The notes beneath the pieces were generated by a model that searched no databases, had not been told where the DNA came from, and was given only the letters and a program-made list of their open reading frames with translations. Below, piece after piece: positions 1,713 through 52,616 of a stretch of 64,000 nucleotides of DNA. Position numbers and translations under genes: made by a program. The stretch's first letter is position 1, and every line of letters begins with the position of its first letter. The DNA lies in assembly GCA_000733355.1 (NCBI GenBank), contig JNVV01000017.1, positions 519,374 through 583,373 of the forward strand, read 5' to 3'. The stretch comes from Falciphora oryzae (Eukaryota; Ascomycota; Sordariomycetes; Magnaporthales; Magnaporthaceae).

Positions 1713-4636
1713 GGGCTGTCTATCCAGCCCCTGCGTTTGGCTATTTGGCCCCAAGATTGCGGGTCCACAGTGCCACCACACACGGATTCGGTACCTCTGC
1801 CAAATCTCCACCTAATGGCGAAAGATCTGGAGGTATTTCATATCAGCCCTATGGATCGTAGAAAATCAAAAAAGCTCAACACCATAAAAAAAGCCGTGAT
1901 AATCTTTTTATGCTCAAAGTCATCTTCTAAAAGGCTTCAACAACAATGCATTCCTGGGTCTCCTGGGCGCCCAATTTAGCCTGTGAGAGCGCCTCTTCAA
2001 CTATACGGTCAAAATCCCCCTCGTTTATCACCGGAATATCGTCATATTCATCATCTGGAAGCGTCATTTGCGAAAACGCGGCCTCAAGTACCTCGTCGTC
2101 AACCTCGTCGGCGAGGCGGGCAAGAAGGCGTGCTGAGCGCCGTGGTGCGGCCGTGCCTGGTTCGTAGAGATCGAGGGGGTGGGAGAGATCCTCTGAGGCT
2201 GGGGGTCGGCTTAACCTTGTCAGGTCAACGGCGGAGGCGCGCCCTGCCAAATTAGCAGGGCGTGACTCGGGCCCGGGTTTGAGCAGGCCCAGTTCAGGGG
2301 CAGACGACGTGGGGGCCTCGTTGCGTGCCAGGGAAGATCCCCTGCTGACAAGGGCCCTGCCTACTGCAAAGGGGGCCGTTGAGGGCGGCAAAGCATCCCG
2401 GGCCTCCTCGAGGCCCGCAATCTCGTGGGCACTTGGCAACCGCTTTGTTGAGTTGGCCCCCGGCCCTGTTGCGATCGAGCCCTTGGGCCTGCCCTTGTTC
2501 CGGATAACCAACGGATCTATAGGTCCAGGCGGTGGCGGAGGTGGCGATAGATGTCCTTCGTCGTCAGAGGAAGCAGGGCTTGCCTCGTTGGCTCCCTGTC
2601 CCTCATAAGGGTGCCACCACCAAAAAGGATCGAACTGGGTGATCTCCAACGGCAGATCTTCCTGCAAGTGGCGGAAAACAACGTGGCGGCAGGGCAGGCC
2701 GTGGGTTGCCGTGATCGTGCAATCGCATGGGCCGTTGCCCGGCGTGGGCGGTGGCAGATCCCACCGGTCACTGCGAGGCTGATCGGGGATCGCCGACTTT
2801 TCTGTCTTGACGAGGCGGAGGGCTTGGTGCACGAGGAGAGTCCTCACCGTGGAAAATAGCACTATTTCATAGCCAAACGGCATTTTATTAGACTGGGTTG
2901 CTCGCAATAACTCGACAGTACTCGCCTGGGTCCTCCAATAGAGGCGCAGCCTTTTATAGACCGTTGCCAGGTCGCCGCCGGCCTTATTGATAAAGGTTTT
3001 CATGCCGGCGTGAAGGGACTCAACGATCGAGGTTGTGCGGTATCCGTAGTGCCGTAGGGCGTTAACCCAGGCGCCCACGAGTTGTTCCTTATAAGGATCA
3101 AGCCACGTGCTTACGGTATAAAGCACAGCGCCCTCCGCGTATTTGCCGGGCCTTTGGAAATCTCTTAAGCGCTTTTCGTAAACCGCTTCCGTAGGTGAGG
3201 CCAAAAGATCGTTCCACGCCTGCAAAAACGACTGAAAACGAGGGTGCCGCTCGATCGAGCCGTCAGCCTGCCTTTGGGCGGGCGGGAAAAAGCGCTTGGT
3301 CTTGGCGAGCACGTTCATGTTGACGTGCCAACGGCAAAGGATACGTGGCACTAAACAGAAGCCGGCGTCGCGTTTGAGGGCGTTAATTAGGGCCAACTCT
3401 CGATCCGTGATCACGAGTTTTGGGTGCGGTAGGTCCTCCTCTTGCAGATACTCTCCCAGCACCCGGAGTGCCCAACGATATTGTTCTTCCTTCTCCGCGT
3501 TGACGAACGCCGCAGCCAGAGAGAAGCTTCGTTTATAGGGCAAAATACCGCAAATGTTAAGCAGGGGAAGGTTGAATCGGTTCGTTTTGTAGGTGCAATC
3601 GAGAGCGAGGAGGTTGGGGGCGGATCGATAGAGAGGGAGGGCCGACTTGGGCGCGATAAAGAGGCACAGAACGCGGCCTTGTTCGTCGCGGAGATCTCGA
3701 TAAAAGTAGTTGGCGGGATCATCTAATTGCTATTGGGATATATAGGTTAGCATATATTTTAATAGGGAAAGCGATGGCAAAGGGAGAAAAGGGGATTACG
3801 TCGTAAAGCCACGCAATTGGGGTTCTGCCTTTGAGCTCCTCTCGCCGATAGATCTGCAGGCAGTTGACGAGATCCTTATAGGTAAAGGCAACGGGCCGGC
3901 CTGTCTCCTCTGCCTCCTCCTCCAAGGCCGCGATAATCGCTCTAGGGCGCGCGCCGGCCCTCCAAAGAGGCAGTATCCGTTGCTTATGCTCTTCGAGATT
4001 GCCTCGCCGGTAGGCAGAAAACGAGGCTGGAGAATCGGCAAGATCATGGTTGTGATCTCCGCTCGGAGGCTCGACGACCCATTTGCCCGTATTCAAGCGC
4101 TTGATACTCGTGCGGAAGAGGCAGCCTGTCATTTTGGTCGCCGTCCGCCGACGTTTATTCTTGTGGGTGGCGGGCAGGGCCGAGGAGGCCACGGAACGGC
4201 CTCTCCCGCACCGGAATCGAACGCGAGAAACGACGCCGTCGGCGCCGACGTACTTGTCCCGGAGGATTATCTCGTAGCCTGCAGCGTGCGCCTGGCTTTT
4301 TAGGGCGGCCGTGGCCTCGTCGGCGGTCGCGTAAGTGGCAGGGAACTCCATGGCGATAGCGTTGTTGGCGTGCGTGGGTGCGTGGGAATAGCTTCAAAAA
4401 GGCGGTGCGGAGGGTTGTTGTTGTTGTGCATGCGTTGTTGTGGGGGAAAATCTTAATTGGAGAGGTGAGGAGTTGGGCGATAGACCGTGGCGCTTTGATC
4501 GGTACATCCGGGGATTCGGGAGCAGGGATTATTTGGGTGGGAAATACATGAAAAGTCGAATCTAATTATGATCCGCACAGTGGATCCACTATCTTGGGGC
4601 CAAATAGCCAAACGCAGGGGCTGGATAGACACTCCC
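1713..4636. mobile_element. Complete Mutator-like (MULE) DNA transposon in the NLR gene
   Basis: The ends form terminal inverted repeats whose core of 41 bp (TGTCTATCC...CCAAGAT) is identical at 1717-1757 and, inverted, at 4591-4631. The flanks carry the direct repeat TTGGTAAAG at 1704-1712 and 4637-4645, a 9-bp target-site duplication typical of MULEs. The single gene inside has both exons open from start to stop. Identical TIR cores, a perfect duplication and an open transposase all point to a recent insertion. The exact first base is ambiguous by one because the TIR tips differ slightly. Confidence 0.93.
1927..4351 (-). CDS. MULE transposase
   Basis: Two exons, 4351-3800 and 3729-1927, joined by a 70-nt intron (3730-3799, GTAATC...GCTAAC...ATAG) give about 784 residues. 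Exon 1 holds a FAR1/WRKY-GCM1-like zinc-binding region (CGRGRSV..., GCLFRTSIKRLNTGKW, DHNHDL). Exon 2 holds the MULE catalytic core: first Asp in LLALDCTYKTN, second in LVITDREL, and Glu in TTSIVESLHAGMK, followed by a SWIM zinc finger CDCTITATHGLPCRH. The C-terminal ~180 residues are low-complexity and acidic. No stop or frameshift is seen, so it is probably functional. Similar in type to fungal Hop-like MULEs; I cannot assign a named family. Confidence 0.9.
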
Positions 4637-6758
4637 TTGGTAAAGGGAGGTCATGGTTTCCGGCAAGGCTCCAGAAAAGGCATTGTCGTCGTAGGTATGA
4701 CATAGCGCATCCAGTTGTATGGGGATTCGAACCAGATCCTGAATGAGCAGATGGTTATGGAGGAATGACTGAACCTGATCGGCTGTTTTTGTGTTTTTAG
4801 AGAAGACCTCCTTGAGATACTGGCTCACTTGCTCTGGATAGAATCCGATTGTCTCTAGATGGAGGTTAAAGTCGGGCATACGAAGTGACGTATGTGGCCG
4901 AGACGTAACGATGACGTTGGGCTGAGTCAAAAGAGTTTGAAGGAAACGGGACATGTCGCCGTCCAAGTCCTGGTATGCTTCGTTCAGGCCGTCGAGGAGA
5001 AAAAGAGTCCTGCTGCTTTTGGTCTTTTCCAATGTGTCCGACAATGCTTTAGCGAGGTCCGGTTTGTCGTTCGGCAGAGAGAAATACTCATGCTTAAGGA
5101 GGTGGGTGAAGCTGTATCCTGGTACCTGGCGTTTTGCTTTTAGCTTCAGATTCCGTAAAGGCACCCAAAGGACGCGGTCGAACAATTGGCTCCATTCGCT
5201 CCATGTGTTACGGGCAAACTTATGGACAGTCTTCTTGCACAGGGTAGTTTTGCCAACTTTAGCTCGTCCTCGGATTAGGATTCTTTTTGGTTGTGGGTGT
5301 GGCCGTCGCGACCTTTACGTGGGTTGAAGAGTGTCGGCAGTTCGATTTGGATGTCCTTATCCGGGGTTTCGGTTTTCAGCCGAGCGTGGAGTGAAAACGG
5401 AGAGGATTGAGGCGGTATATCTTTTTCTAATCTTTTTTCGGAGCGGGTTGCATTACGGCCCGGTTGCTTTACGATGGCGAGATTGATGTAGCATTGATCC
5501 ATCGATAGCTGCTCGCCCGAAAGTCGTTCGATTTTGAGCCTTTCCGCAGTATAGTGGTTGTCGCGGATCCAGGCGTCCGCTTGCTTGAGGGGACTCCCCT
5601 TACGAATGTCCGCGAGCATTTTTTGAATTTGTTTAGCAACACGGTTGTAATTTGGACATTTAGGGCCCGAGAATTTGTTTATTAGGATATGGGGTCGATC
5701 CAATAACAATGGATCCGGGACTATGTCCAAAGTCGCTGATGACGTATCGACTAACTGACGAGCGTTAGCGGCTTTTACGAATATAAATACGAGCTGGAAG
5801 AATTAGAACGGCGAATATTGCACGAGTTTACCAGTTTTTCGTTGGCGAGCCAGTCTGGCAGTAAAGGAAACGCTTTGCGCGGCAAATTCGTCGTTCCTTT
5901 TTCATAGAAGTTGAACAATAGGCAGGGAGGATCGTTGTGTTGGGCCAGGTGAGTGAATTTGCGTACGAGTTCCTTAAGATCGAAGGTTGATCTCTTTACG
6001 CTGTTGAGTAGGCTGTTCACTTCTTGGCCTCTGAACAATGCACGGGCTTTCAGTCCTCGCTCTGCCCATGCTGCTACCTGTTGGAACGAAGTCTTTCGGA
6101 ACGGCGTGGCAAGAAAGAGAATACCGCGCGTGGCTCGTCGGATAGAATCGTAGGTTTTCCTAGTGTCCACAAGAGCTTTCATTAAAATGATGCCCCCGAG
6201 GCACGACGCGATGAAGAAAATTTGCCGATTTTCTCTTTTTGCGTGTTCGCTCGTTGCCGGGGGCCGGCTTTGGATACCGTTGAATAGGAGCAGAGCGAGC
6301 TCCTCCTTAGTTTTTTGGACCAAGTTTGACAGTTGCAGCAGGTCGGCCGGCCAGTCGCATGTGAAGATCCGAGCCGGTCCGACTTTGCTCGGGAGCATAC
6401 GCGGGTCGGAGAGCCAGTTAACACTGGAATCGTTGGGGCTTTTTTTCCAGGTCCACGTGTCCGGCGACCCCGTGTCCAGGCCATGGATGGCGATGATGTC
6501 GATGTTTGTGTCCGCCTTATCCTTCTCAAGGCAGACTTGAGTAAGACGGACGCCTTGTCGCGTGGATCGTGTTGGATGACTGTGATCTGCTCCGGGCCGT
6601 GACTTTTCCCCCGCACAGATAGCCACCGGGTTGGTTTCGTATTGGGCGGTACTGTTGCTCGTCGCCGGTTCGCCAGGGGGATTTCCGGCAGAACCCTTAG
6701 GCGATATTCGCGTTCTCTTTTTAAAAAGGGCCGTCCGGACCCAGATTAGACACCTCAT

Positions 6759-21756: not shown

Positions 21757-22470
21757 TTATATATAAAAGGAAAGTATAATCCTTACTACCCGGCCGGTCG
21801 ACTTGACCACATATTCCTCGATAAAGCTTACGATAGCGTACTTGGATGCAATCGGCCGGAAACCCTCAGAAAGACCCATAAGATCGGGTGAGTTTGGCCG
21901 CAAAAGGTTAAGGTAAGGGTTGGGATATGTTGACCTGGATACCACCATAGCCAAGAGCTTCGCGGCCTTACCCACGAGGTCCGCAACGTCCATTCCGCGG
22001 TGCGGTGTGCCAAAGAATACGATGACTTTGGTGTTGCCGGCAATGCTGCTAAACGATTCCTCGTTGTTTGCAATGCGCAAAGCCTGTGCGGATGAGGCGG
22101 GGGTGTCCATCGGCTCATTTGGCCTTGCTCCATCAATGACCGAAACGCAATAGACGGACCTGCCTGACAATGATTCCCCCATGCCATGTCCGATAAAGAC
22201 AAGTGGGATATGAACGCTGTCTTCATCTTCTTGTTGATCTCTCAACCTACACAGCAAGTTGCGAGCATTTTCTTGAACACCTCCCATATTGTGAAGCCTG
22301 CCGACGAGACAGGCGTTGTATCCGTATGTCTTGATGCGAGTGTTTGGCAGCTTGCGCAAGAGCAGGTCGTTGAGCCACAGTGTCTTCGTCCCTGTGGGGG
22401 ACTCGCTAGTCAAGGACTCGAAGCAGTCGCCTAGTAGGCCATGGACGGCGACAATCCTGAGTTGTGGTGA
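21757..22470 (-). pseudogene. SesB/SERAC1-like hydrolase domain of a truncated NLR
   Basis: After an acceptor at about 22462 (TTGCTAACATG...CTCAG), the minus strand reads RIVAVHGLLGDCFESL, KTYGYNACLVGRLHN, LVFIGHGMG and FFGTPHRGMD, the core of an alpha/beta hydrolase found at fungal NLR N-termini. Splicing out 22084-22159 (GT-AG, 76 nt) would join IIVRQ to ALRIANNEE, the usual continuation, but the preceding G run is one base too short to stay in frame. The nucleophile Ser of GHSxG is Gly here. No NACHT follows, so the gene is cut short. Confidence 0.6.
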
Positions 22471-22532
22471 GTAGTCTCATGTTAGCAACAGTGCGGTCGT
22501 CGAAGAACCCCGAGGGGAAGGGGGCTTCTGCC

Positions 22533-24967
22533 CTACTGCAATGTGGGCTTCCCATGTATCGCTTCCCAATTTGGAGCAATTGGCGGAAGAGTAAACAATC
22601 CCGTGCGGTTGTCGTTGTGAGTCCGGCCGAGATTTCTCAGTTCGAATGGCTCCAATGATGATCCGACCCCGTCGTCGCCGCCCAGTTGCGATAGCTTGCT
22701 ATTTTCCATGTCGCCCAAAAGCTCCTTGATTTGAGCCCCCTGCCAATGGTTCTCTGTTGCCGCCGCGAGAACTCTTTTTGTAACGTTAACCTCAGCTTTC
22801 CTCCGCTGAAGCAGAATGGCCAACACGGCCGACCCCTGCCGTCTATTGCCAGCCGCAGCAACGAGCACGTCTTCGGTGATTTTCACCTCGTCACCTCTGT
22901 AATCGAGCAGAAGGTTCATTGATGCCCCTCCTTCCCGGATGTTTCCTGCTATAGCTTTGGTCACGTCTTCGGTAACCTTGACCTCGTCCCCTCGGTGATT
23001 GAACAGGGTCCGCAAGACTTCGGCATCCAGGGAGCCCGCAATCCAAACGACTCTTTCTCGGCCCAGCGGCGTGCCACGTCGAAGGATAGCCGTGATTGCC
23101 TCGAGCTTTTCTGGTACCAAAGTTCCCTCGTCTTCGTACGTCGATGCTAACTCCTCCCTATTCCTGAGCGTGTCTGGATGGCGTGCTCCTTGTACGCACT
23201 TCCTGGTCTCTATCAGTTGTTCGAGTATTTCCTTTGCCGCTTTCCACTCATGCGATCGTCGATACACCCGTACGAGCCATTCTTTAGCTGCCAGCGTGCC
23301 AAGGTTCTCTCCTCCAAACTCCACCTCCTGGGCGTCGATAATCTGCCGGAGTGCCGCTGCTGCTTCCTGGTACTGTTCGCCGTCGTCCAGAACAGATGCT
23401 GCGTTCCACAATCTGTCCAGCTTGCTCGACTGGCGAGCCGGGATCTTGGTCCCCGGACACACCTGAGCCCGGAATCCCGCCACCGTGTCGTAGTCATCTC
23501 TGCGCTGCGCGCCTGGCTGTGCTGCTTCCCAGTCCCATACGAGCAGCATTCGCAGTGGGAAGCTTGCGACGGCGGCCTGCTCTTCCCCAAGAAGAGGAGT
23601 TGCGATTGCAATGACAGAGAAGTAGTCGCTACACTGCCTGATCAACGTAGGTCTTGCTGCTCCGGCCAGCAAGCACACCAGATCACCGACCTGGGCGGGC
23701 CTTGCCAAAGGAGGAAGCGTCCACCTCTGTGGCGTCTGCACGTCCAGGCGCCCGGACGTACCTTTCAACGCGACAGCGACCTGCTGCTGGTTGTTTCGAT
23801 TATTCTGAATGGTCCAAGACACCTTGCCGATCACTACACCTCTGCCGCTAATGGCGGCCGTTTCTGTGTCAGACCACGCCTCGACCATAACCTGAGTGCC
23901 GAGCAGGAATGTCACGACGCGCTCCAGCAGGACACGCCACTGGATTCCATAATTCGGTGACAGATCGGCGGGCAGCAGGTCGGAGCTCATGCTGATGAGG
24001 GCGAACACCTTGTCGTGGCGGACGGTGGCCTGGCGGGAGTGGTACATGTCTATCAGCTCGCTCAGGGGCCGAATGGGGATGCGAGCCGGTTCCTTTCCCT
24101 GCTGAAACACTGCGCCCCCGATAAGGTACGTCACAGGACGGATCAGGCTCTGCAGGTCTGGAGCGGCTTCGTAGACGGGGTCCAACGCGGCCGAATTGAG
24201 AGCGGCGCTGAATGCGTAGCCGTCAATGCCCGTTGACCCGCATCTAACTAGAATGCTTCGAGCGGCGGCAACCTCTTGAAGCACCTGAACGAGTCTTCGT
24301 CAGCGTTGTGCCCGACGTCGAAGGGAAATGGCCTTGGAATTCTCACCCAGATACGCTCAAACCACCGCCTTCTCAACAACGCGAGCACTCCTTGTTTTGT
24401 TTCTCCACTGATCATCAACTCACTGCTATTACCAGACATTTCCTCAACGGCAACGCGGCGGATCTCCTGCAGCGCCCAATCGCCCCGCTCATCTCCCGCC
24501 TCGTCCAGCCAGACGACCACGCGGTTGGCATGGCTGTAGATGTTGGCCATGAGCCGAATCTGGTCCGCCTTTTCCCCGTCGTCGCCCTGGTTAATACACA
24601 CGGCGTCCACCCACAGGATCCTCTCCAGGTGTCGGTTGCGGAGGTGTCGCAGTGCCGCGTGCAGGTTCGCCGTGACGGGCAGGTCGCGGCCGTCAATGGA
24701 GATGCTGTGGCGCCCGTCTGGCTTGCCCCAAACGTACGAGAGCGCTTCGTACAGATGGGAGTCATACCTCTTCTCTACCTCTCCTGGCCCGAGTAAAGGG
24801 TATTCGAAAAGCTGGCACTGCAGAGGCGCATCTTGTGTCGGGTGCGGCAGCAACCGCAGCAGGCGAATGGTGCCAGGTTTGAGGAAGGGAACATGGCGGT
24901 ACTGGAGCTTGGAGGAGTTGTGATCACTGCGCTGGCCGAGAGCGTCGCTGCTAGGTGCTTGGGACAT
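22533..24967 (-). CDS. HET-domain protein with TPR and ankyrin-like repeats
   Basis: Two exons, 24967-24347 and 24284-22533, joined in phase 0 across a 62-nt intron (24285-24346), give about 790 residues. The HET domain (residues ~55-215) shows YEALSYVWG, ILWVDAVCINQ, and WFERIWVLQEV spanning the splice junction. The middle holds a HET-type tail (HDKVFALISMSSD), then TPR-like text (LDRLWNAASVLDDGEQYQEA, HPDTLRNREELASTYEDEG). The C-terminus carries about three degenerate repeats of the type LLLDYRGDEVKITEDVLVAA AGN seen in fungal STAND proteins. HET proteins trigger non-self cell death after hyphal fusion. The frame is open throughout, so it may be active. The start at MSQAPSSDALG is chosen because it precedes the usual short leader of HET proteins. 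Confidence 0.85.
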
Positions 24968-26218
24968 CGTAGTAGGGAAAACGAGGGCGGAGGGACTCGG
25001 TAATTCCAGTTGATACTTAAGGGTTTGGACAGGATACTGGAGCACAGCCAGTTGAAAAGGAAAAGGGGGGAAATGCTGGATCTTGGTTACGCAGCGAGCA
25101 GACGAGAATGGAGTTTGGCAGGGTACCGGACGCCTTCGGGCTGATCGTCGGGCAAGCCGTTGGGAATTAGGCAAACCTCGGGCAAGATCTTTGTTCTTGG
25201 GGCCCAAGTTGCAGGTCCCAATCTGGCCAATTGGATGGCGAAGCCTGACGAGCCAATTGCCGGCTCCGTTGGGATACGGAAGATGGATATCGGCTTTATG
25301 GACGACCCGAGCGCCGGGAAAGACTCGAGGTGCCACTGGAGTCAGATTGACAGACCGTGCCGCAGCCGACCGGATCGACACCGGCGCGGCCAACTCACTG
25401 CAGCAGCCACCCGGCGAGCCGGACAGATTGACAACAGATCAACTGCTGTCCGCGCCCGGCCCCACTTCGGCCGACCGCCGGTGCATTGTGCTTTGTTATG
25501 CACTACGCGCAGTTCACGCAGTGCAACGTTGGCGCCCGCATAGCGACGGCGACGTGAGCTCGCTAATTGATTGATTGATAGTACAGCGGTGGTGCGCGAG
25601 CATGTTTTCGGGTTTGATGTTATGGTGGCCGATAGGGGGGCCCGCACGAGCGCAGATGGCGCAGCGCCGAAAGCAGTTGGCAGAGCGGCTTGGGCGTTTT
25701 CCAACGTCGAAAGGTCGTTGCAGGTATCGAGCAACGAGCAGCTGAACCCAGCCAGGCCCTCTGGTGCTGCACCTCTCCAATTCAAGCACAACGTGCCCGC
25801 CAATTCGCAGCCTGCAAGGCTGCCCCCTGGCTCTCGAGAGCGGTTCCAGCAGCTGCCCCAACGGCCCGAGACCAACGGTTTGCTCCACCATGCCCGCCCC
25901 ATCCAGGCGAAACTGCAGTGGAAGAGAAACTGTATACCCCGCAAACCCGCTGCCAACCGCTACAGTCCGACACTAGTAATTACATTGTAATGCCATCACC
26001 AACCGGAAAAATTGCACGGCCGCTGCAACAAGGCCCCGCTCCCTCGGGGCGGCGGCCTCATCGGGCACCTCGGACTCGTGGAGATGCACAAGGAAAGGCG
26101 TAAACGCAAGGATTATTCGCATGGAGAAGCGGCGGAAGGCGAAGGAGCGGGAAATGCGGACTGAAAGAAACGCGTCTTCCTTCATTCAAGCTCTACGACC
26201 ACATTGCCCGGGTTTACG
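24968..26218. other. Intergenic, no gene recognised
   Basis: Upstream of the HET gene and downstream of the gasdermin-like gene. Open frames overlap on both strands without domain signal. Confidence 0.4.
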
Positions 26219-27112
26219 TTAAAAATCCTCGTCGTCTCCAGCCACGTGTACGCACAGCACCTCGTCCCCGTCCTCGTCCTGGAGCGCCGCTTCGGCATCC
26301 ATGTCCCACAGATCTGGCAGGTCAGGATCCTCGGGCTTTAGGTCCAGCACCTCGGCCTCGTACTCTCGCGGAGACCCTTCCGCCTCGGCCATCACCTGGG
26401 CGTTCTCTCGCCTCCCGCCACCCTTAGCGTACAGGTCGCCGTTGCGGTAGTCTCGCAGCTTGTTGACGGCCTTGCGCTTGTACAGGATCTCGCGCAGGCG
26501 GTACGAGAAGACGAAGTCGTCCTCGATGTGCCCGGCCACAACCTGGCCCCACTGCGCCACCGCTTGGCCGCCAGCGCCCACCGTCACCGGAGCGCACAAC
26601 GGCGTAGGGTTTGCGCTGAGGTGGAGGTGCTGGCCGCGGCTCTTCGCTGCCGTGATCATGTAATCGGTGCCGCTGGCGATTTGCACGCCCGTGACCATGT
26701 AGAGGTTGGAGCTGAAGCGGCTGCCCCGAAGCGACGCCTGCACCTCGGGCTCGGCGAAGATGGCGTTGATGTCGGCCATGTCCGGGCTGATGGTGACCGA
26801 GGTGAGCGTGCGAAACCGGTACGAGGCCGCCTTGCTGCTTTCGAGCTGCACACCCACGCCAGAGCCCAGCCCCGTGAAGGCAAGAAAGTTGCTCCATACA
26901 CCGAACGCAAAGCCGGCGCGGCTGCTCGGGTTGCGCGTGGCCGCCTGCTCCTTCACCGCTGCTGCGCTGCTCACGATCCGGCGCAGCGTTTCCGAGTTGC
27001 GGCTGTTGAGAGCCATCTCGGGCGTCCGCGGCGACTCGATGATGTTTCCCAGGGCTATGGGGCCTGACGGCGGGCTGTCACGCGTTGGCGCCAGAAAGTA
27101 TGTTTTCGGCAT
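26219..27112 (-). CDS. Gasdermin-like pore-forming protein (HET-Q1/RCD-1 type)
   Basis: Intronless, 297 residues from the ATG at 27112. The N-terminus MPKTYFLAPTRDSPPSGPIA plus LGNIIESPRTPEMALNS fits the conserved start of fungal gasdermin-like proteins as I know it. Further along are a Gly-rich amphipathic stretch (FGVWSNFLAFTGLGSGVG), YMVTGVQIASGTDYMI, FVFSYRLREILYKRK, and an acidic tail of about 60 residues (DLKPEDPDLPDLWDMD, ALQDEDGDEVLC) ending GDDEDF. Known biology: fungal gasdermins are released by cleavage near the C-terminus and permeabilise membranes in allorecognition death. The neighbour across the divergent promoter is an S8 protease, as in het-Q1/het-Q2. Codon use is strongly GC3. 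Assignment rests on remembered motifs; a profile search would settle it. Confidence 0.65.
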   Translation of the reverse strand: MPKTYFLAPTRDSPPSGPIALGNIIESPRTPEMALNSRNSETLRRIVSSAAAVKEQAATRNPSSRAGFAFGVWSNFLAFTGLGSGVGVQLESSKAASYRFRTLTSVTISPDMADINAIFAEPEVQASLRGSRFSSNLYMVTGVQIASGTDYMITAAKSRGQHLHLSANPTPLCAPVTVGAGGQAVAQWGQVVAGHIEDDFVFSYRLREILYKRKAVNKLRDYRNGDLYAKGGGRRENAQVMAEAEGSPREYEAEVLDLKPEDPDLPDLWDMDAEAALQDEDGDEVLCVHVAGDDEDF

Positions 27113-27735
27113 CGTCGTTTGGATCCCGTTGCTGTCCAGACGTCTGGGGAGGTGGTCGGGAGCGGAGGTCCTTGCAGTCCTTACCAAGTGCGCCGGACGA
27201 GTGCCCAGGCGCGCGGTTCGCCCACCCAGTCAGTTCGTGATGCCCTCACGGCCTCGGTTGCTTAGCCTCATTGGGGTAGCCCGGGTGCTGGCTCCGGAGG
27301 GTTCATGTTGTCACATGGAATGGCGCAGCTGAAAGCTGCAGACGCCGCATGATGCATATTCGCTCACACTAGGCAGCAGCCGGCGCCCGATGAGCCGGTG
27401 GACAAATTTGTGAGCCGCGTTTTTCGCCAGCAAAAGTGGGATCCGCGCATTCACTGCACCCCAGTCTCGTTTTCGCCTTAGCCAGCACAACCTGAGCGTA
27501 TTTCGACTGCGTTCGCGTCAGCACTTGCGCTCCCGCGCCCTACATTCTCGGACGCTGCTCTCTGAGGTTCCATTATCTTGCTCGACGGGAGAACCATTTT
27601 TAGCATTACAGTTACGCCATTTTGCGCGGACGCCGATAGCACTCGTCCAATCGCGATGGGATCGGAGACGCGGAGTACGTGCTTCCTCCGCCGGTCCATA
27701 CTAGCCAGTCATCTCGGGTGTTCTAACTTTCGTAG
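27113..27735. promoter_or_regulatory. Divergent intergenic region between gasdermin-like and S8 genes
   Basis: About 600 bp separate the two start regions, which are transcribed away from each other, so regulatory sequence is probably shared. The right half may also contain an untranslated or unidentified first exon of the protease: the sequence TTCTAACTTTCGTAG just before 27736 looks like a branch point and acceptor. No TATA box stands out. Confidence 0.4.
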
Positions 27736-29777
27736 TGGAGAGGCGGCAACTGTTCGACGCCAAAGATGGCGTCGAGGGAGATGAAGCGTAAGTGCTGGCC
27801 CGGGCTTCTCGTTCAGGCCTTGCGCATTCGCTAACCCATCCTTTAGTGCCGCCGAATGGTTTAGAGACCTGGCTAGAATCAACGCGACTTTTGATGAGCA
27901 ACGGATCGGGAGGTTTAAGCGCGTTAAAATCGCTACATTGGACACGGGCATAGATATGACAAACGACGTCTTCAACAATCCAACAGCCAGGGAGCGCATC
28001 AAGCAGCGCGAGGATTTCTTGCGCGAGGATCCCTCGCGGACCGACGCCCACGACAAGTGCGGCCATGGCTCGCACTGCGCCGGCCTGCTGCGACGAGTTG
28101 CCCCGGCTGCCGACATTTACATTGCCTGCGTCGCTAAGGACTTTAGCACGGGGCTGGACGCCGAGGTGGTGATTAAGGCATGTAAAGACTCTCTCCCCAG
28201 ACGGCGAAGTTAGCACCACCGCCGTCGATAAATACGACCCGGGCCACTTTGCTCACATGCCAGCCCAGGCCATCGAACGAGCTTGCGCGCCCAAGATAGA
28301 CAAGGCCGGCTGGGACGTCGACATCATTACCATGTCGTTTGGGCTCCAAGAGCAGATAGAGCCGGTCGAGGCGGCGCTGCGCGAAGCCCTCAACCATGGC
28401 AAGATCATATTCGCCGCCGCCTCCAACAGCGGCGCGCGCAGAGAGATCGCCTTTCCAGCCTGGGTCGGCGGCATCGTATGCGTCAACTCGGCTACGGGCG
28501 ACGGCACACCTTCCACATTTAATCCGGTGGCCCAGCCCCCCAATAACTTCGCCATCCTGGGCGAGAACGTGCGCTCGGCCTGGATCTCTTCGCGGCCGAA
28601 CGCTACCAGGCATGGGGAGACCAAGATCATGTCAGGCACTTCCATGGCCTCGCCCATCGCCGCCGCCGTCTTCTCGCTCCTGCTCGAGGTGGCCTTGAAT
28701 CCCGCTGGAGACGAAGCCCGCCGCATCCTCGGGTACTACCAATCCAAAATGCGCAAAAGCGATGCCGTCCAAACGATACTGAAAAAAACATCAGACAACC
28801 GCGGCGAGTACACGGTCATTAACCTAAGGTTCCTCAAAGAAGTCGATGACCGGCTGGAGGTTGCCTACTGGATCAAGGACGCGCTGTGCGAGAGGTACGG
28901 CAAGCCGGGCGTCTCTGAGAGCCAACAAGGTAAGCCATTCATCCCTCATACCTGGTTCCAGCAACTAAGACCTTGCTCCAACTCCCCCGTCTCCGCAACC
29001 AACAGCCTCTCGCGCTGCCACCGTACCTCCTGCACAGCGAGAAATACGGCCGCCGCCGAAACCACTCCTTTTCTATACCCTGACCTCCAAAAACCATCAC
29101 ATCCGCGAAGCGAACTCCTACTGGGTCCACCTGACCCTGGACGCCTACGAGATATACGAAAGAATATACGAGGACTGCAAAGATCCCGGCAGCGGCTGGG
29201 TTTATTGTAAGTTTGTAATCTCGTCTGCCATTCCTCGCCCTGCCCCGCCGCTAGAACCCCTCAGGGCCTTCTTCCTAGTCTCACGGATGTGTGCTAATTC
29301 TGTTTGGGATGCGCAGACACCAGCTTTGCCCGCCAGTTCACCGGCACAGTGCCGGGGCCGAGCCTGGTCGAGTCGATGTGGGCTACTCTGCTCCGCGATA
29401 AGGGGAATATTACCGGCTCGAAGTACCCCAAAGGCTTCGCCATGGCAGTGCTTTACATGTTACACCTGAAGCGGTTTAGGCCGGAGCTGAAGCCGCTGAA
29501 CGAGGAACGGAGAGTCGGCATTAGCGAGGGGCAGCGCTCGCGGCTCGAAGGCTTTGGTAACTGGGTCGGGTGCCTGTGCAAACCGAACCTCCAGTGTGCC
29601 GTGCTGTGGAACTTTGTCGGCGGGCGTGGTCTGCACCGCGGCGGCAAGCCTAAGTCGTGCCTGCTGGCTAAGTTTATCGACAGCGACGGGAAGGTCGGGA
29701 TCTTCGAATCGGGCAAAATAGAAAGGGCGCTGCTGAAGAGAGCGCGGCAAGACTGGCGGGACAGCCTGAATAGATGA
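27736..29777 (+). CDS. S8 subtilisin-like protease with novel C-terminal domain
   Basis: Exons ?-27787, 27847-28177, 28269-28929, 29006-29206, 29317-29777 keep one frame. The catalytic triad is present: Asp in ATLDTGIDM, His in CGHGSHCAG, Ser in SGTSMASP, with DIITMSFG and FAAASNSG between. The second intron (28178-28268) begins GC (GCATGT), a GC-AG intron or a mutated donor; only this join gives VIKAIERAC. After the protease domain come about 250 residues I do not recognise, including NSYWVHLTLDAYEIYERIY and GFAMAVLYMLHLKRFRPEL and GNWVGCLCKPNLQCAVLWNF. No ATG was found: the first visible exon starts at an acceptor, and the DUF7580-type N-terminal region present in the second protease is absent here. 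Divergent from the gasdermin-like gene; inferred to be its activating protease. Confidence 0.7.
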
Positions 29778-43590: not shown

Positions 43591-46500
43591 CACTCTCTCT
43601 CTTTGCTCCCGCCCCTCGTTTGTGCTTCCCTCCAGCCGGCTTATGGCCGCCTCCTGGTTATGTGCGCGGGAGCCTGCATCGCTAGCCTGCCGCGCCAATC
43701 CCTGTCGGGACTCAAACGACCCAAAATCCGCTGGTGGTGTCGGTGGCACACTCGACTCTACTAAAACGGTCGCTATAACGGTAACGGCGGGCGCCTCCGA
43801 CCTCCTGTCGTCCTCGAAAATGTCGAGGAAGCGCGTGCCTTTAGTGACGATCTTAAATGCCCTCAGGATCATCTCGTCGACGATGTTAACGTCCTCGCTC
43901 GGATCAGGCTGCCGCTGGTGCTCCTGTAACCTTTTGGCCGTCTTGACCAATGCCGAAAGCTCCGACAGCAGCGATTTACGGCTGCGGCGTAGGCCCTCAT
44001 GGCGCTGGATAAGGGCCGACTCCCGTGTTAGGCAGTTTGTCCTCTCCTGCTCCGGGAGAGTCAGTTAGCATTAAAGCCGGAGAATTAAGTAGTTTAAAAC
44101 GCCATTCCGGAAAAATCAAACCGTGGCCGCATGGCTCAGGTGTGTGTAGTAGTAGATCCGGCTAATACGGCGGCAAAACGGAACATTTCCAAAAGGCGGG
44201 AGGCATACCAAAAGGTACCGCACGCCAGCGATGATCCCCTTTATAAATTCCTGGTCTCTAAAAATTTCGCTGTCGTTAACGGCCGTGCTCCTTAGGAGGT
44301 CCCAGAAGTTGAGCAGGGCCTTAAGCAGGTTACGCATCTCATCTGGGTCGTAGGCTTCGCAGTAGTTAGTGGGCAGCCAGCCGCGCGCGCCAGACACGAG
44401 CAGGGTGCCGTCGGCCCAGCCGTTGGTGTGTATCGAGTGCACCAGCACGACGTCCCCTTCGCTCAGCGTCAGCGTCACGGTCGAGTCGGATATGGTGTAG
44501 GTCGGTTGGAATTGGGAGAAAGCCCGCAAAAAGTTGTGGAAAACGGGCGGCGGCGGGCTGACCGCCATCGGCGGATCTTTTTGCGAGACATTGGGCGCCG
44601 CGGGCGGAGTAGCAGCAGCACCGGATCTCGAGTCGGCGCTATTTATCGTCGAGGTATCGGCGCCCAGCTCGGCCAGCTGCCTCGCGACCGCCTCGTGCCC
44701 GTTCTCCTCCTCTCCCAGCACTCTTTTTCTCGTTTCCATCATTTGCACCTCTAGCGATTCGGCCTCCTTCCACCGGCTCTGGCCGCTATACGTCGACGCC
44801 AGGTTGCCCATGCTGGTCAGCGTGTCGGGATGCTCCTCTCCCAACACCCTCTTTTCCATAAGGCCTCCCTCTGCGGCAGTCTGGAGAGCGGCAGGGTCCA
44901 TCCCCTGCTTTAGTAGCAGCTCTACGGTCTTGTCGTGGCCGTTCTCTGCCGCTAACAAGAGCGGTGTTTTGCGTTCCTCATCCCCACCTACTTTGTTGTC
45001 GTCGTCGGCATCGTCGTCCGTTTTCTCCTCCTCTGCTTTCTGTTGCCCGTCGTCGTCGTTCTCCCTGGCAGCCCCAGCCCCGCCTGCGAGATCTAGGGGG
45101 CCTTGCAGGTTAACCAGATCCCCATCCACCACATACCTTTTGGGACCGTCAATGGGCGAACCGGCTTGTGGCGGTCCCGAAGCACCGGCACCAGCAGCGC
45201 CAGTTGTGGATGGTTCTGCCGGTGGCGGGTCGAGGCCGGCAGAGATTGCGTCCCAGTCATGACCCTTGTCCGCCGGGGCTGGAGCGGCGTTTAAGTCGAT
45301 GAGATCCACCTCCCCCTCTTCGCCCGCATTTACCTCATCCCCCTCCTTCCCCTTTTCCTTCTCCTCTCCACCGCCATACTTGGCTTTGCTGTTGTCTTCG
45401 AGATTCTTGGCGGCCTGCCCAACGCAGTAGTAATCGACGGGGTCGGCCCGGTTCCCCACGCTCTGTTGAGGGGCGCTCACGTATCCCGGGTACGTCTGGG
45501 TGCTGGGGGGGATTGTCGAGGACTCGGAGGGAGCGTGGGTCGTCCGGTACTGGTCGAAGGTCGCAGATAGCCCGGAGAAGGTCCTCGAGGTCACGACTTG
45601 GCTCTGGGTTCTCAGGCTGCCGACCCCGGTCCAGGGGCCATATTCACTTGATTCGGGATCGGAGGTATCCAACTCGGCAGCGCTACCCCGGTCGCCTTGT
45701 CGCCTTGAAGACTTATCCTCGGATTTGTCGTCGAAATAGCCACCCTCGTCAAAGTAGCCCGTGTACTCCCTAAGATTCGCTGGCGTAGGTCCAGAGTGGT
45801 CGGCCCCATCGTAACTGCATAGTTTCAGCTCGACCTCTTCCCCATCCTGAAAGGCCGGCTCTCGGATCCAGCGGCCAAACGGGGTTTCAGAGTCTTCCTC
45901 GTCTGGAAGCTTCCATTTTCCAGGTTGCTCCTTCAAGTCGTGCATTTCCGGCTTGGGCCATGGAAGAGCGCGAAGAGCGAAGTCGTAGGCCTCTTGCAGA
46001 ACGTGGTCGACAAGGTCCGGTGCATCTTCGGGTCCATAGGATGAGCAAAACGGGCATGTTGTGATTCCCATCGTTTGAACAGCAGACCAAGAGAGAAGGG
46101 TGGACAGGGAGTTGTCCATGAGCTCGTCTTTGTGATTGGTCTGAAGGTGAAGCCCCATGGTCTCCATCGTGGGCTGTTCCGCGTCGTCGCCTTCGCAGAA
46201 CGGACACTGCCACCGCGGCAGGTGGCTCTTTTTCACATGCGTTTCCCACTCCTTTCGTGTGCAGAAGAGCAGCTGTGGTGTAGGACAGTTTTCGGCGATG
46301 CAGGTGTAAGGACACAGATCCTCGACGACATGCTGCCTGAATGATATTTGTTAGGAGTCGCCATAAAGGGAAGAGGGGCGGAAAACAGAGTGGATATACA
46401 TACTTCCAGAGCTTAGGATCCTTGAACGTCTCCACCTGCAACGACTGACAGCAACAGGGACACTGAAAGATCTCTCGACCTTCAAGTATAACAGGGGGTT

Positions 46501-47722: not shown

Positions 47723-50700
47723 ATGATGGATAAAAACACATCTACTCTGCTGAGGGAGAGTGGTACGAAGATCGCTAATGCTATCGTCACAGCCGCTGGC
47801 GGACGACGCATCACGCCCTCTGAAGCCTGCTACTCGGTTGCGCACGACGTCGCAGTCAGGCTTCAGCTCATAGACGGATATCTTGGCTCTCTCCCGCCCT
47901 ATTGGATTGAGCCTGATGTCGAAGAGCTTTGCGACTCCCTCCTGCAGGACCTCTCGGATATCACCATTGTAAGAGGCGCGCCCCTTCAGGCACACTGCGA
48001 CCTTCGGGGACTCAGGTGCGACCAGCGGTCGGCAGGCACCTCGGCCGCGAAACACCAACACCACAGATCGATAGAGAACGGGTGGGCTGGAGTGAACGGT
48101 TATTTTAACCGTAGTCAGCAACTGGGAAAATTGGTGGCCGGTCGGGTGTGATCATGCTGACAGATGTACCGCGCCTCAGCTACCAAAACGGCCGTCCAGC
48201 CCCGCCCCATTCCCACATCTACCTCTGAGGTTCTCGTCTCCTTTTGGCAGACCGGAACCTCCGGATCTCGAGACCAGTCTCTTGAATTTCTTCAGAGCAC
48301 AAACCACAAGGGCACGAAAGCTCAAGAGCACCTGCGATGAACTGCTAGCCAAGCTTACCAAGGACGACGCCGAGAACGATACTCAGGAAGTACCTCAAAG
48401 CGCGCTGAAAAACCTCAACTGCGCCGACATGTCAGCTTACTTCAATGGTGGCGTATTCAATGCCCTCCAGCTGATATCCAAATGCAACCCAGAGTCCCAC
48501 GAGAATGTGGTCGAGGATCTCTGGCATCCAGCTCGGCTGTGCCTTGACGACACCGAGGTTGGCATTCGAGTCCTTGTGTCATCTACCACGGGGACGGGCG
48601 ACTGGCAGGAGTTTTGCGTGAGAACGTGCGCATAATTCTCTCTACAATGCTCCCTTACCCACGCTAACAACATAGGAGTAGTCAACCAGGATTCGCCAGT
48701 GACGAACATCGGCCCTTTCTCGAACAAGGGGGATTCTGCGATGTTCTGGAAAGGGAGATCACCGCCCGCCTTTTCTTGTCGTTCATAGAGGGCCGTGGCT
48801 TCACAATCCTCGGGGAGCCGCAACAACTGCAGCAAATGCTCCAAGCTGGTCGCGGGGAGTCACTTGCGACAGTCCTTCGCAAATACGACCTCAAACCAAA
48901 GGACAAGGTTCTCCTTGCGTCCGCAGTAGCACGGGCGTACTGGCAGCAGTAAGTGGATCTTCACTTGTCTATATCCCACAGCGTCCAGTAACAAAAACCC
49001 ACCACCTCACCGAAAGACAAAAACTGGAGTCCGGATGAAAAATCCCTCTCCGAGGATCGTCCTTTCACATTATTTGCACAAGGGAGAATCTGATCCTGAG
49101 CTGCGCAGCTACGATTCGGACCTGATGAGGACCCGATGGACAAGCGACACGATCTGGTTCATGCCTGAGCAAGAAAGCAAAACACGGAAGGATCAACTAC
49201 CCCTGTGCGCGTACCTGTCATTCCCCTTCGGTAGCCCCGATAACTCGTCCAAAGACATCTTCCTGGAAGATCTTCTGACCCATCGATGCCCCCGGATCTT
49301 CGACGTAGGGGTGCTTCTCCTGGAAATCGGTCTTGGGGAGAAGTTTCGGACAGGCAACAAACGAGAGCTCGTCGCACAGCTTAACCTCAACCACAAGATT
49401 GCGACCGACACATTGGAAGAACTGGAGAAGGCAACCTGGGACGGCTTCTTAAACAAGAAGGTCTTTGACCAGGCTGTAAAGTTCTGCCTCGACAGCAAGA
49501 ACTTCATCAGGGCCTCAGAGAAGCCAAAAACTAGCCGGCTCGGTGTAGCGAATCCTCCCGAACCAATGACCGTTGAAGAGCAGAAGAGGGGGATCATCGA
49601 GAGGAGAAGAATCTTCTACCGGCACGTCGTCCAGCCGCTCGCGTGGCTGGCGAGGGAGGGCTTCAAGGCACAACCTGGGCTTATCACCTACGTCAACAAG
49701 AAACGCCCCGAACCTCAACTAGGGTCAGCCGACCCCGCACAGCAACTGGATGGAGAATATCTTTTCCACGGCACGATCGTCCCTAAGATGTGGCTCCAGG
49801 ACATTAAGAAGATCAGTGAATCGGTGGAGCACAAGCGCCGAGCACGACGCATCACGACTCCCGTTCGAGTTGCGATCCTGGACACGGGACTGAACATGGA
49901 TCTGCCCATATTCAAGAAAAAACCAGGCCTCAAGCGTACTGTCAAAGACCATGTAGACTATGTTGACCCCGGCGCGTCGACCATGACGGACACTTTTGGC
50001 CACGGTACCTTGATGACAAGAATCGTCATGGAGTGCGCACCCGGCGCGGAGATCCTCGTTGCGCGGGTCGCCAGAAACAGCAAGGAGCTCAAGACCAGCC
50101 AGGAAAACATTCGACAGGTGAGTGAGACAACCTTTTTGTTTCGTGTTAAGCGGTGATCATGTTAATCGCGTTACCCAACGGTAAACCACGTCAAGGTTGT
50201 GGATCATCCAGAGGGTTGCATACATCTCGGGTCATCTGTACCTGAAGGAGGGTTACGGATATTCCGTGAGATGCTAAGCGAAGTATTCTGACCACTGCTC
50301 GCGGGCCCACGTCGCTAATGCAAGCGGATGCACAGGCTATCCTCTGGGCAGGCCAGCCTGGTAAAGCCGACATTATTTTCATGTCGTTCGGCGTCTCCCG
50401 GAAAGACGAGGGCGGGATCGGCGAGGCTATTGAGGCCGTCGAAAGGGAGCGTAAGGAGGACATTATCTTCCTCGCCAGCGCCGGGAACTCGGACACCGAC
50501 GACGAAAGCTTCCCGGCCTGCCATGCCTCGGTCGTTGCTGTTTACGCAACCGACAAGCACGGAGCACCTCTCTCATCGAATGCAGTAGCCCCCGGTCAGA
50601 ACACCTGGGTTTTGGGCACGTATGGCGACCCGCCAGACTCCCTCCGCGACGAGTTCGATACCCCCTACCCGGGAATCTGCGAGGCGGGCTCATCCATAGC

Positions 50701-51028
50701 CACGGCGGCCATGGCGGGCATTAGCGCGGCGATGCTCGCATACGCCACGGTGCTCCCCTCGCTGGTAGAGCTGCGGTGCAACCACGTGCTGAAACGGCTC
50801 TGGACTGCTAAAGGGATGGAGGCACTTCTCTACCGGCTGGCGCCGGAGTCAAAAGCCCACCCGTGGCTCCTGGCCGTGAAGCCGCCGGTGTTTTGGAAGA
50901 ATTGGTCCGACGATTCGATGAGGCACTGCGTGTTCATCGACACGCAGTCAAAGGTGGAAAGGTTGTTTCCGAGGCGGCCGCGGGCGCCGGCGAAGAAGAC
51001 TGACACCGAGGGCCAGCCCACAGGCTAG
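47723..51028 (+). CDS. DUF7580 / S8 subtilisin-like protease (HET-Q2-like)
   Basis: Exon 1 (47723 on) starts MMDKNTSTLLRESGTKIANA. Later exons give FFRAQTTRARKLKSTCDELL, GFCDVLEREITARLFLSFIE and LKPKDKVLLASAVARAYW, then after a 160-nt intron (48949-49108) HYDSDLMRTRWTSDTIWFMP, the DUF7580 signature. The protease domain follows, split by a 218-nt intron (50118-50335): Asp in VAILDTGLNM, His in FGHGTLMTR, Asn in ASAGNSDTDD, Ser in AGSSIATAAMAG. The C-terminus is short and basic. The last two introns join cleanly, but the first two junctions (about 47965-48250 and 48620-48680) do not keep frame with any GT-AG choice I tried, so there may be one-base errors or lesions there. Downstream on the same strand lies a second gasdermin-like gene. 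Confidence 0.72.
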
Positions 51029-51767
51029 GACCTCCGTGAACTCCTCGTTGCAGGATCATTCATAAGGCGTTTATTCTGTCGGAGGGCATTCTTTGGGTAG
51101 TAAGCGCTAAATAACGATATGCCATCTTCTTACAAACAAATCGACATCTCCTGCTGTTGATCCACCAAGGGGCAGCCAATATCAAGGTCCAACGCTCTCC
51201 GCCCGCGACGGCCGTCGTCCACGAGGGTAAGCTCCGAAGGACGTAGCGACAGTGCAGCGAACGGGGTTACCCCATTACTGGCAGCTCAGCCGCCCGCCCC
51301 ATCGACGCCTGGTGTGTCCGGTTGTGATTGGGTGGCGCAGCCGAACCTGCAGATGGTGGCGCGGAGTCGCACTCGCATCGGTCGGGCTGGGACCTCGAGA
51401 CTGGACATCGGACCTCGTCGTCAACTGCCATTGCGCGAGGAGAAAACCGCCGGCGAGTAGGTATACCGCGAAAAACGGCAAGATGTCGAGCAAGACCTGG
51501 GTATGGCTCTCAACTCCCAACTTGTCTCCCTCAGACCGAAGCACACCGCCACGCGGCCATCCTCTGCCGTCGCATGCGTCGCAGATTCGATGGCCGCCGC
51601 TCCCATCAACCACCTAATCCCTTACCACAAGTCAATCAGGCGCGAAGTATCGAGGTCATCTTTCCGTCCCGCGTCGAAACCATTCACTCATTCACCCCAA
51701 AAGCCCGCGGAGAGCTCGAGGAGATGGTTGGCAGGATGTCGCACAGGCTAACCCCAATGTCCGACAG
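51029..51767. other. Between S8 and gasdermin-like genes; first exon unresolved
   Basis: Probably contains the promoter and first exon of the downstream gene. Open text such as VIFPSRVETIHSFTPKARGE (51650-51715) is protein-like but in another frame. A branch-like GCTAACC at 51747 and acceptor CGACAG at 51767 are visible. Confidence 0.4.
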
Positions 51768-52616
51768 TTTCTCCCCCCAGACTTCACCTTCCTTCCCGAC
51801 GGCGCCATCGCCCTTGGGCGGGTAATCCCCGACCCGCGACGGCCGACCGTGACGCTCGCCTCCCTCGGCCCCCAATCGGAGAACCCGACCATTGCCCTGC
51901 CCGAGACGAAGTCGCTTATCGAAAAGGGTCGCGCCTTCTCGGCCGAAAAGAAACGCTCCTTCGGCTTCGAGCTGCTGGCCAAGTTTCTCGAGCTGGCCTC
52001 GGCCAACGGCAAGACCGACGCGTCGTGGTCGCAGAACAAGAGCTTCAGCGCCGTCGACCACGAGGTGCGCAACCTCAACGGCGTCTTCGCGCCCGAGGCG
52101 CTGCGGGCCATCACCCGCCTGGACGAGGTGAAGCGGCACATTGACAGCGGGCAGTTTGGGAAGCGGTGCGTGTACATCATCTCCGGGCTCCGCGTGGCGG
52201 TGGACTCGTTCACCGTTACGGACGAGAAAGCGTCCAAGGTGTCGGGGTCGGTGGGCGGGTCCGGGCCGGTGCCGGCGGGTGGGATGCCGTTGGAGGTGGG
52301 AGGGGGGCTGTCTGCGGCCAACGAGGACAAGAGCAACCGGTCGTATCAGACGGCACCCGGGATCGTCTTTGCGTACTGCCTGCATGTTATCCGACCGAAG
52401 GGGAAGGACAACGCTGAAGGGGAGGTGTTTTCCGACAGGACGGCGTTCCTCACCGGGGAAGCCGGGGAGAGCGACGACGACGAAGTTGAAGAGATGGAAC
52501 TTGTGGCCGTAGACGCAGAGACGGCCAGGAGCGACCTGGATATGGACCCGGACGCGTTCGGTGACGAGCAGATGCTCGAGGATGGGGATGAGGAGTCCTA
52601 CATTGTGCTGAATTAG
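51768..52616 (+). CDS. Second gasdermin-like protein (partial 5' end)
   Basis: Open from the acceptor at 51767 for 282 residues to the TAG at 52616. It follows the same block order as the protein at 26219: FLPDGAIALGRVIPDPRRP (compare PSGPIALGNIIESPRTP), an amphipathic helix FGFELLAKFLELASANG, VYIISGLRVAVDSFTV (compare YMVTGVQIASGTDYMI), FAYCLHVIRPKGKD (compare FSYRLREILYKRK), and an acidic tail (GESDDDEVEEMELVAVD, EQMLEDGDEESYIVLN). Overall identity looks low, so this is a distant paralogue. It lies about 740 bp downstream of an S8 protease gene on the same strand. Start codon not found in this frame; a short first exon is likely. Pore-forming function is inferred from the family only. Confidence 0.58.
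   Translation, partial: FLPPDFTFLPDGAIALGRVIPDPRRPTVTLASLGPQSENPTIALPETKSLIEKGRAFSAEKKRSFGFELLAKFLELASANGKTDASWSQNKSFSAVDHEVRNLNGVFAPEALRAITRLDEVKRHIDSGQFGKRCVYIISGLRVAVDSFTVTDEKASKVSGSVGGSGPVPAGGMPLEVGGGLSAANEDKSNRSYQTAPGIVFAYCLHVIRPKGKDNAEGEVFSDRTAFLTGEAGESDDDEVEEMELVAVDAETARSDLDMDPDAFGDEQMLEDGDEESYIVLN

What the first reader, a model, noticed from the sequence alone, without database searches (positions are those of the whole stretch)
26219..29777. Gasdermin-like gene divergent from an S8 subtilisin: a HET-Q1/HET-Q2-like death module
Seen: a 297-residue protein with the fungal gasdermin-like start pattern and acidic tail at 26219-27112, facing away from an S8 protease with intact Asp/His/Ser at 27736-29777. 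Known: in Podospora anserina, HET-Q1 (gasdermin-like) is cleaved and activated by the subtilisin-like HET-Q2, and fungal gasdermin genes are often next to protease genes. Inference: this pair is an allorecognition cell-death module. Unlike the second pair here, the protease lacks a visible DUF7580 N-terminus and has an unknown ~250-residue C-terminal domain.
Basis: partly seen in the sequence, partly recalled or inferred. Interest (0 to 1): 0.9.

Follow-up and report, generated by a model that had tools for sequence, protein, structure and literature searches.

The report
Gasdermin–protease pair with unrecognised domain
A fungal pore-forming protein sits back to back with the protease that probably switches it on to kill the cell, a known kind of pairing, but this protease carries an extra domain that no database recognised, shared with a lipase elsewhere in the genome, and its catalytic part looks stitched together from two old versions of the gene.

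Summary

The 'HET-Q1/HET-Q2 allorecognition' label is only partly supported: both intact genes lie in one genome, so they look like a regulated sensor-executioner pair.

Less ordinary: (1) the protease has no DUF7580, which stands beside 10 of the 13 S8-paired gasdermins, and ends in a ~200-aa domain X without Pfam or PDB match. (2) X recurs behind a patatin phospholipase on contig C1, with an intron at the same place and phase. (3) Protease residues 126-217 have a different ancestry from the rest. Function is inferred throughout; nothing was assayed.

The parts
26219..27112 (-). GSDM1: fungal gasdermin-like protein, 297 aa, no intron
   Evidence: ORF; 40 homologues E<=1e-3; fold matches RCD-1
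26426..26443 (-). Candidate cleavage linker N-G-D-L-Y-A (GSDM1 residues 224-229), between the beta core and the acidic tail
   Evidence: G225 and L227 in at least 90% of 41 rows; short patches with hydrophobic residues lie here in the five paralogues aligned. Cleavage itself is inferred
26222..26425 (-). Acidic, low-confidence C-terminal tail (residues 230-297), the presumed inhibitory piece
   Evidence: charge count; pLDDT < 50 over 215-277 and 283-297
27113..27655 (.). 543-bp divergent intergenic region, presumed shared promoter
   Evidence: promoter function is inferred
27656..29777 (+). S8-X protease gene, 6 exons (27656-27674, 27736-27787, 27847-28177, 28269-28929, 29006-29206, 29317-29777), 574 aa
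   Evidence: homologues P0041-P0044
27914..28901 (+). Peptidase S8 domain (residues 47-345, intron 3 inside); D56 at 27941-27943, H97 at 28064-28066, N187 at 28425-28427, S259 at 28641-28643
   Evidence: Pfam PF00082 (homologues); subtilisin fold of the 84%-identical homologue P0041; P0041 aligned with BPN'; coordinates
28151..28517 (+). Segment of different ancestry, residues 126-217 (intron 3 inside): like MAPG_10261, the rest like MAPG_12079
   Evidence: sliding identity; 31 of 32 informative sites inside against 19 of 166 outside, 0 of 1000 shuffles; conflicting trees
29074..29774 (+). Domain X: C-terminal ~197-aa domain (residues 378-574, intron 29207-29316 inside), four Cys invariant in six sequences
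   Evidence: no Pfam (homologues), no PDB (profile A5); second copy C-terminal to a patatin on contig C1

Best explanation
The two genes form a regulated cell-death module of the fungal fGSDM/Q2L kind. GSDM1 is made in an autoinhibited form; its acidic tail of about 70 residues keeps the pore-forming beta-sheet core silent (inferred). The divergent gene makes an S8 protease whose C-terminal domain X holds it in check or senses a signal (inferred from two things: other gasdermin-linked proteases carry DUF7580, TPR or similar modules beside the S8 domain, and X is reused behind a patatin phospholipase, another effector enzyme of fungal immune receptors). On the signal, the protease cuts GSDM1 in the conserved N/K-G-[DA]-L-[YF] linker, the core assembles RCD-1-like membrane pores and the cell dies. 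Shown by computation: the gasdermin fold, the subtilisin fold of a close homologue, the triad, adjacency in other genera, the shared domain X and the mosaic ancestry of protease residues 126-217. Inferred: cleavage, pore formation, the role of X, the signal, and the biological setting (defence, allorecognition or both).
Against: No sequence-level match above noise to a solved gasdermin (best E 0.26); the model's mean pLDDT is 62.7, so the fold match rests on the core. No Pfam family hit. The cleavage site is only a conserved motif; the one mapped site (HET-Q1 F238, 40 residues lost; PMC10989679, passage) leaves a shorter tail than the 68-70 residues expected here. The fold of domain X is unresolved (most of it pLDDT < 50; only 4 of the 26 aligned rows are known to carry X). 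12 of the 16 tagged gasdermin homologues had no next-door protease, a search that scored a capped list of candidates. No expression, cleavage or toxicity data.
Confidence: 0.8

Rival explanations
1. It is a het-Q-type allorecognition locus: death occurs mainly when strains with different versions fuse, and the mosaic protease reflects balanced old alleles.
For: Allorecognition genes are often drawn from gasdermin, NLR and HET families (PMC10197012, passage). Two divergent classes of the protease segment cut across genera: MAPG_12079 goes with G. hyphopodioides (95/92, only 73/75 in the smaller set), the window with MAPG_10261. A HET-domain ORF lies beside GSDM1.
Against: Both intact partners are in one genome, unlike the het-Q configuration as described. 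M. poae ATCC 64411 is listed with both protease versions (MAPG_10261 and MAPG_12079), which argues for paralogues rather than alleles. No population data.
Confidence: 0.15
2. The protease does not act on GSDM1; the neighbours share only a promoter, and the protease serves another substrate.
For: For 40 of the 53 S8 loci counted in this genome the four gasdermin queries found no gasdermin nearby. No cleavage has been shown.
Against: 13 of 14 gasdermin loci have S8 nearby, and the pairing recurs in other genera. Identity of three homologous gasdermins to GSDM1 runs with that of protease segment 126-217 (81/87, 77/74, 67/57%) rather than with the rest of S8 (68, 67, 70%), though n = 3.
Confidence: 0.05
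3. For the mosaic only: residues 126-217 look foreign because of convergent selection, or because the public MAPG_12079 model or the assembly is wrong, not because of recombination or gene conversion.
For: The segment boundaries were chosen from the data. MAPG_12079 lies on a 4,295-bp contig. Only five close relatives were at hand. No DNA of the relatives was fetched.
Against: 31 of 32 informative sites inside against 19 of 166 outside; 0 of 1000 shuffles reach this with the best segment chosen anew each time. The trees reject the alternative on both partitions (p 8.6e-5 and 3.0e-4). The MAPG_12079 segment is 70% identical to that of G. hyphopodioides, so it is real protease sequence.
Confidence: 0.1

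Closest known systems
Podospora anserina HET-Q1 / HET-Q2
   Same: A gasdermin with a short C-terminal inhibitory tail and an S8 subtilisin-like protease; the same proposed activation by tail cleavage (PMC10989679 and PMC12881547, passages).
   Different: HET-Q2 is 388 aa and is proposed to be a derived, constitutively active protease in a strain-incompatibility setting; here both intact genes sit in one genome and the protease (574 aa) carries domain X. The tail here is about 70 residues, against 40 removed from HET-Q1.
Neurospora crassa RCD-1 (RCD-1-1/RCD-1-2)
   Same: Best structural match of GSDM1.
   Different: RCD-1 works by meeting of two allelic forms, not by cleavage (PMC12881547, passage); GSDM1 has a protease neighbour and an acidic tail of about 70 residues.
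fGSDM/Q2L two-gene clusters of fungi
   Same: Gasdermin beside a sensor protease; about 63% are clustered with S8 genes (PMC10197012, passage). In this genome 13 of 14 gasdermin loci have S8 nearby.
   Different: Partner modules named in the passages read are WD40, ANK, TPR, NLR and kinase-like; domain X is not named there. In this genome DUF7580 stands beside 10 of the 13, not here.
Bacterial gasdermin systems with protease genes
   Same: Weak PADLOC matches: GSDM1 to bGSDM (E 0.0055), P0041 to a 'subtilase' model (E 1e-7).
   Different: Eukaryotic, divergent genes, the protease with introns; no prokaryotic relative of domain X found in one pattern-based scan.
Magnaporthiopsis poae MAPG_10260/10261, Monosporascus DL769_004432/004433, Gaeumannomyces hyphopodioides RB595_001432/001433
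   Same: Homologous pairs with the same protease architecture, S8 plus X.
   Different: Listed as hypothetical proteins. M. poae also has MAPG_12079, nearest in backbone but with a different segment 126-217.

Membership tests
Fungal gasdermin (fGSDM) | Gasdermin N-terminal pore-forming fold | tested here: met
   AF2 model matches RCD-1 first, then gasdermins of bacteria and animals
Fungal gasdermin (fGSDM) | Sequence family conserved in fungi | tested here: met
   40 homologues, those with an organism name all fungal; five paralogues of this genome align over their length
Fungal gasdermin (fGSDM) | Membrane pore formation and toxicity after activation | not testable with these tools
   needs expression
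HET-Q2-like (Q2L) S8 protease | S8 domain with Asp/His/Ser triad | tested here: met
   window piece, residues; homologues
HET-Q2-like (Q2L) S8 protease | Gene within 10 kb of a gasdermin gene | tested here: met
   543 bp apart
HET-Q2-like (Q2L) S8 protease | Cleaves the neighbouring gasdermin | not testable with these tools
   conserved linker motif only
het-Q allorecognition system | Gasdermin and active protease carried by different strains, death on fusion | tested here: not met
   In the one genome examined both intact genes are adjacent; other strains and fusion were not examined
DUF7580-S8 protease (the type beside most other gasdermins here) | DUF7580 N-terminal to S8 | tested here: not met
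   No DUF7580 hit beside GSDM1 in the whole-genome search; 543 bp upstream
Known Pfam or PDB domain for the C-terminus | Match to a described family | tested here: inconclusive
   By sequence none: Pfam up to E 10 on X of P0041 and P0043, PDB best E 0.19 with profile A5. By fold not tested, since the model there is mostly below pLDDT 50

The most novel reading that the evidence does not exclude
Domain X is an undescribed sensor or control module of fungal immune effectors. It is attached as a C-terminal unit to at least two death-linked enzymes, a gasdermin-activating S8 protease and a patatin phospholipase, and possibly binds zinc through four invariant cysteines. In addition, protease residues 126-217 form a substrate-reading cassette that moves between old protease lineages and must match the neighbouring gasdermin.
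Probability: 0.4. Interest if true: 0.75.

Novelty: new variant of a known kind. Interest (0 to 1): 0.52.

Why it matters
A review read here calls the stimuli that activate these putative sensors a major open question (PMC12881547, passage). A compact protease with one accessory domain, whose only other copy found in the genome sits behind a different effector enzyme, makes that question testable: domain X can be examined as a sensor apart from the enzyme. The mosaic segment gives a second test: which part of such a protease decides which gasdermin it cuts. Three natural versions (window gene, MAPG_10261, MAPG_12079) differ in just this respect.

Tried and rejected
Rejected: 'all other gasdermin partners in this genome carry DUF7580'. 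This held for the first 5 of 5 but not after the wider census: 10 of 13. The exceptions are GSDM1, C4 (its S8 piece abuts frames that look like a retroelement by eye) and C52 (not resolved: an N run at one end, no exon with the Asp located). C70 has gasdermin hits in broken frames and no S8 hit. Rejected: 'no other copy of domain X in this genome', which one search suggested; searches with the more distant MAPG_10261 found the C1 copy. Rejected: 'the gasdermin was replaced together with the protease segment'. The gasdermin tree (window with MAPG_10260 95/95, then G. hyphopodioides, Monosporascus outside) is what descent with the species would give (species relations recalled), although a clade of window, MAPG_10260 and Monosporascus is not rejected (p 0.10). 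What remains is the n = 3 parallel between gasdermin and segment identity. Rejected: GT-AG reading of intron 3, since relatives lack the three extra residues.

Led nowhere: Pfam, NCBIfam, PADLOC and PDB on domain X (the Pfam, NCBIfam and PADLOC hits lay in the S8 part); the AF2 model of domain X, mostly below pLDDT 50; prokaryotic relatives of X (38 pattern matches, none a relative). In the held library, 0 papers for DUF7580 and 0 for gasdermin with Magnaporthiopsis. The region search with X returned P0041 itself, P0043 and P0044 out of 356 candidates and missed P0042, which has X, so its recall is limited and the spread of X outside this genome is unknown. dN/dS and DNA-level breakpoint tests were not run because only proteins of the relatives were at hand.
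Full report
1. What is there. The window belongs to a 50.2-Mb assembly in 123 contigs (contig C17, bases 519374-583373). The nearest named relatives of the two proteins are in Magnaporthiopsis poae, with Monosporascus and Gaeumannomyces hyphopodioides next; outside the odd segment the protease is 89-93% identical to M. poae MAPG_12079. I take the fungus for a member of that group (Magnaporthales, recalled; inference). At 26219-27112(-) lies an intronless 297-aa ORF. At 27656-29777(+) lies a six-exon gene for a 574-aa protein. The genes diverge from a 543-bp gap.

3. The second protein is an S8 protease with an unrecognised tail. Pfam S8 matches a window exon piece at E 2e-13 and the four X-bearing homologues at E 3.5e-20 to 7.8e-26. 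The model of MAPG_12079 (P0041, 84% identical) is a subtilisin, and D56, H97, N187 and S259 are in place. Residues 378-574 form a domain, here called X, with no Pfam match in the homologues and no PDB match. It is present in P0041, P0042, P0043 and P0044 and not seen in the four other S8 relatives aligned with them (one of these, P0045, is labelled a fragment). The precomputed Pfam column gives TPR or DUF7580 domains, or S8 alone, for most other fungal relatives.

4. The pairing recurs. Gasdermin and protease homologues have consecutive tags in M. poae (MAPG_10260/10261), Monosporascus (DL769_004432/004433) and G. hyphopodioides (RB595_001432/001433), all with X, and in the lichen fungus Kuettlingeria (Q9207_004809/004808), with TPRs. 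That is 4 of 16 tagged gasdermin homologues; the other 12 had no next-door protease, which scored a capped list of candidates.

5. Census of the own genome. Four gasdermin queries give 14 loci at E <= 1e-3, some weak (C2:52.9k, 9.5e-4). S8 hits lie within 0.3-1.1 kb of 12, 3.1 kb from one (C2:43.7k), and none was found near C70. Merging the 63 hits gives 53 S8 loci, so about 1% of the genome lies within 5 kb of one. DUF7580 stands beside 10 of the 13 pairs, not beside GSDM1, C4 or C52. C4 abuts retroelement-like frames (by eye) and C52 is unresolved, so GSDM1's partner is the only complete one seen without DUF7580, but C52 is open.

6. Domain X has a second home. A search with the X of MAPG_10261 found one further place at E < 1, C1:3690882-3691133 (E 5.1e-6). 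There X follows a patatin-like phospholipase (Pfam E 7e-22; motifs GGGVRG, GTSTG and DGA, recalled as the patatin active site). The five-exon model reads open to its stop (585 aa). The A5 profile scores this X at 67 bits against 8.4 for the best of 2000 shuffles; hhalign gives probability 98.8 over 159 columns. The intron inside X falls at the same place and phase in both genes, in the codon of an invariant tyrosine. Four cysteines are invariant in all six sequences, a pattern that would suit a metal site (inference). Patatin and Peptidase S8 are both listed among the twelve N-terminal effector domains of fungal NLRs (PMC4986451, passages). X therefore sits where those proteins have their sensing part. 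That is the main reason to read X as sensor or regulator; it is not a proof.

7. The protease is a mosaic. Against MAPG_12079 the window protein is 82-98% identical in the 40-residue windows outside residues 101-240, and 46-67% in the four windows spanning 121-220, where it is 82-92% identical to MAPG_10261. Of 198 informative sites, 31 of 32 within residues 126-217 side with MAPG_10261, 19 of 166 outside; none of 1000 shuffles reached this. Trees: segment, window with MAPG_10261 (96/97), window with MAPG_12079 rejected (p 8.6e-5); rest of S8, window with MAPG_12079 (99/96), window with MAPG_10261 rejected (p 3.0e-4); domain X, window with MAPG_12079 (100/99). The boundaries were chosen from the data, so these p-values flatter. 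In the segment a clade of window, MAPG_12079 and G. hyphopodioides is rejected (p 0.012), while one of window, MAPG_10261 and Monosporascus is not (p 0.51), so the window lineage looks like the receiver. No second copy close to MAPG_10261 was found in this genome. The segment holds the S157-F-G strand and oxyanion N187; in P0041 these stretches align with the S-L-G and N stretches of subtilisin BPN', which from recall (S125-G127, N155) help to shape the S1 and S4 pockets. It may therefore affect substrate choice. Identity of the three tagged pairs to the window is 81/77/67% for the gasdermin, 87/74/57% for the segment and 68/67/70% for the rest of S8: suggestive, n = 3. The gasdermin tree itself looks like plain descent.

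8. How it works. Best supported: an autoinhibited gasdermin, an S8 protease kept silent by X or waiting on X, a signal, a cut in the 224-229 linker, pores and death. Cleavage and pores are inferred from HET-Q1/HET-Q2 and RCD-1 (reviews, passages; the primary paper, PNAS 2022, was not held). Because both intact genes are in one genome, the pair differs from the het-Q incompatibility configuration proposed in PMC10197012 (passage).

9. Novelty. The pair is a new member of the known fGSDM/Q2L kind. The S8-X architecture, the patatin-X relative and the mosaic make it a variant. The held library gave no paper with the word DUF7580 and none with gasdermin and Magnaporthiopsis together; domain X has no name to search by, so I cannot say it is unpublished. 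The ~1500 Q2L proteins in the literature, of which roughly a third fell into annotated architectures (PMC10197012, passage), may well include these.

Noticed in passing
window 48930-51025(+) (gene start not modelled, upstream of it) and 51483-52616(+): A second, tandem pair: a DUF7580-S8 protease followed by GSDM2 (288 aa, intron 51501-51767). GSDM2 has a 61%-identical relative at C2:43756-44532.
   Followed up: partly
window 21760-25438(-): Beside GSDM1 lie a HET-domain ORF (24251-25438, Pfam E 7.2e-35), a TPR/DUF7104 ORF (22536-24299) and an ORF that looks hydrolase-like by eye (21760-22476, no Pfam hit): the stretch looks like a cluster of incompatibility-type genes.
   Followed up: partly
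window 4592-5314(-) and 44119-46350(-): A NACHT NTPase piece and a frame with TPR, ankyrin and SH3 matches: more NLR-like material in the same 64 kb.
   Followed up: no
window 1930-3729(-): MULE transposase domain, Pfam E 4.7e-20.
   Followed up: no
L034 3309-5365 (G000:C1:3689308-3691364): Patatin-like phospholipase carrying the only other copy of domain X found in this genome at E < 1.
   Followed up: yes
L031 (G000:C4:1240500-1249500): A gasdermin hit next to an S8 piece whose upstream side abuts frames that look like a retroelement by eye.
   Followed up: partly
P0002/P0043, Monosporascus sp. CRB-8-3: The gasdermin of this fungus, which I recall as distantly related (Xylariales), is 77% identical to the window's, above that of G. 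hyphopodioides (67%): possible horizontal transfer or uneven loss.
   Followed up: partly
P0015: Carries a precomputed Pfam PF26164.1 match, but the local Pfam scan gave no family.
   Followed up: no
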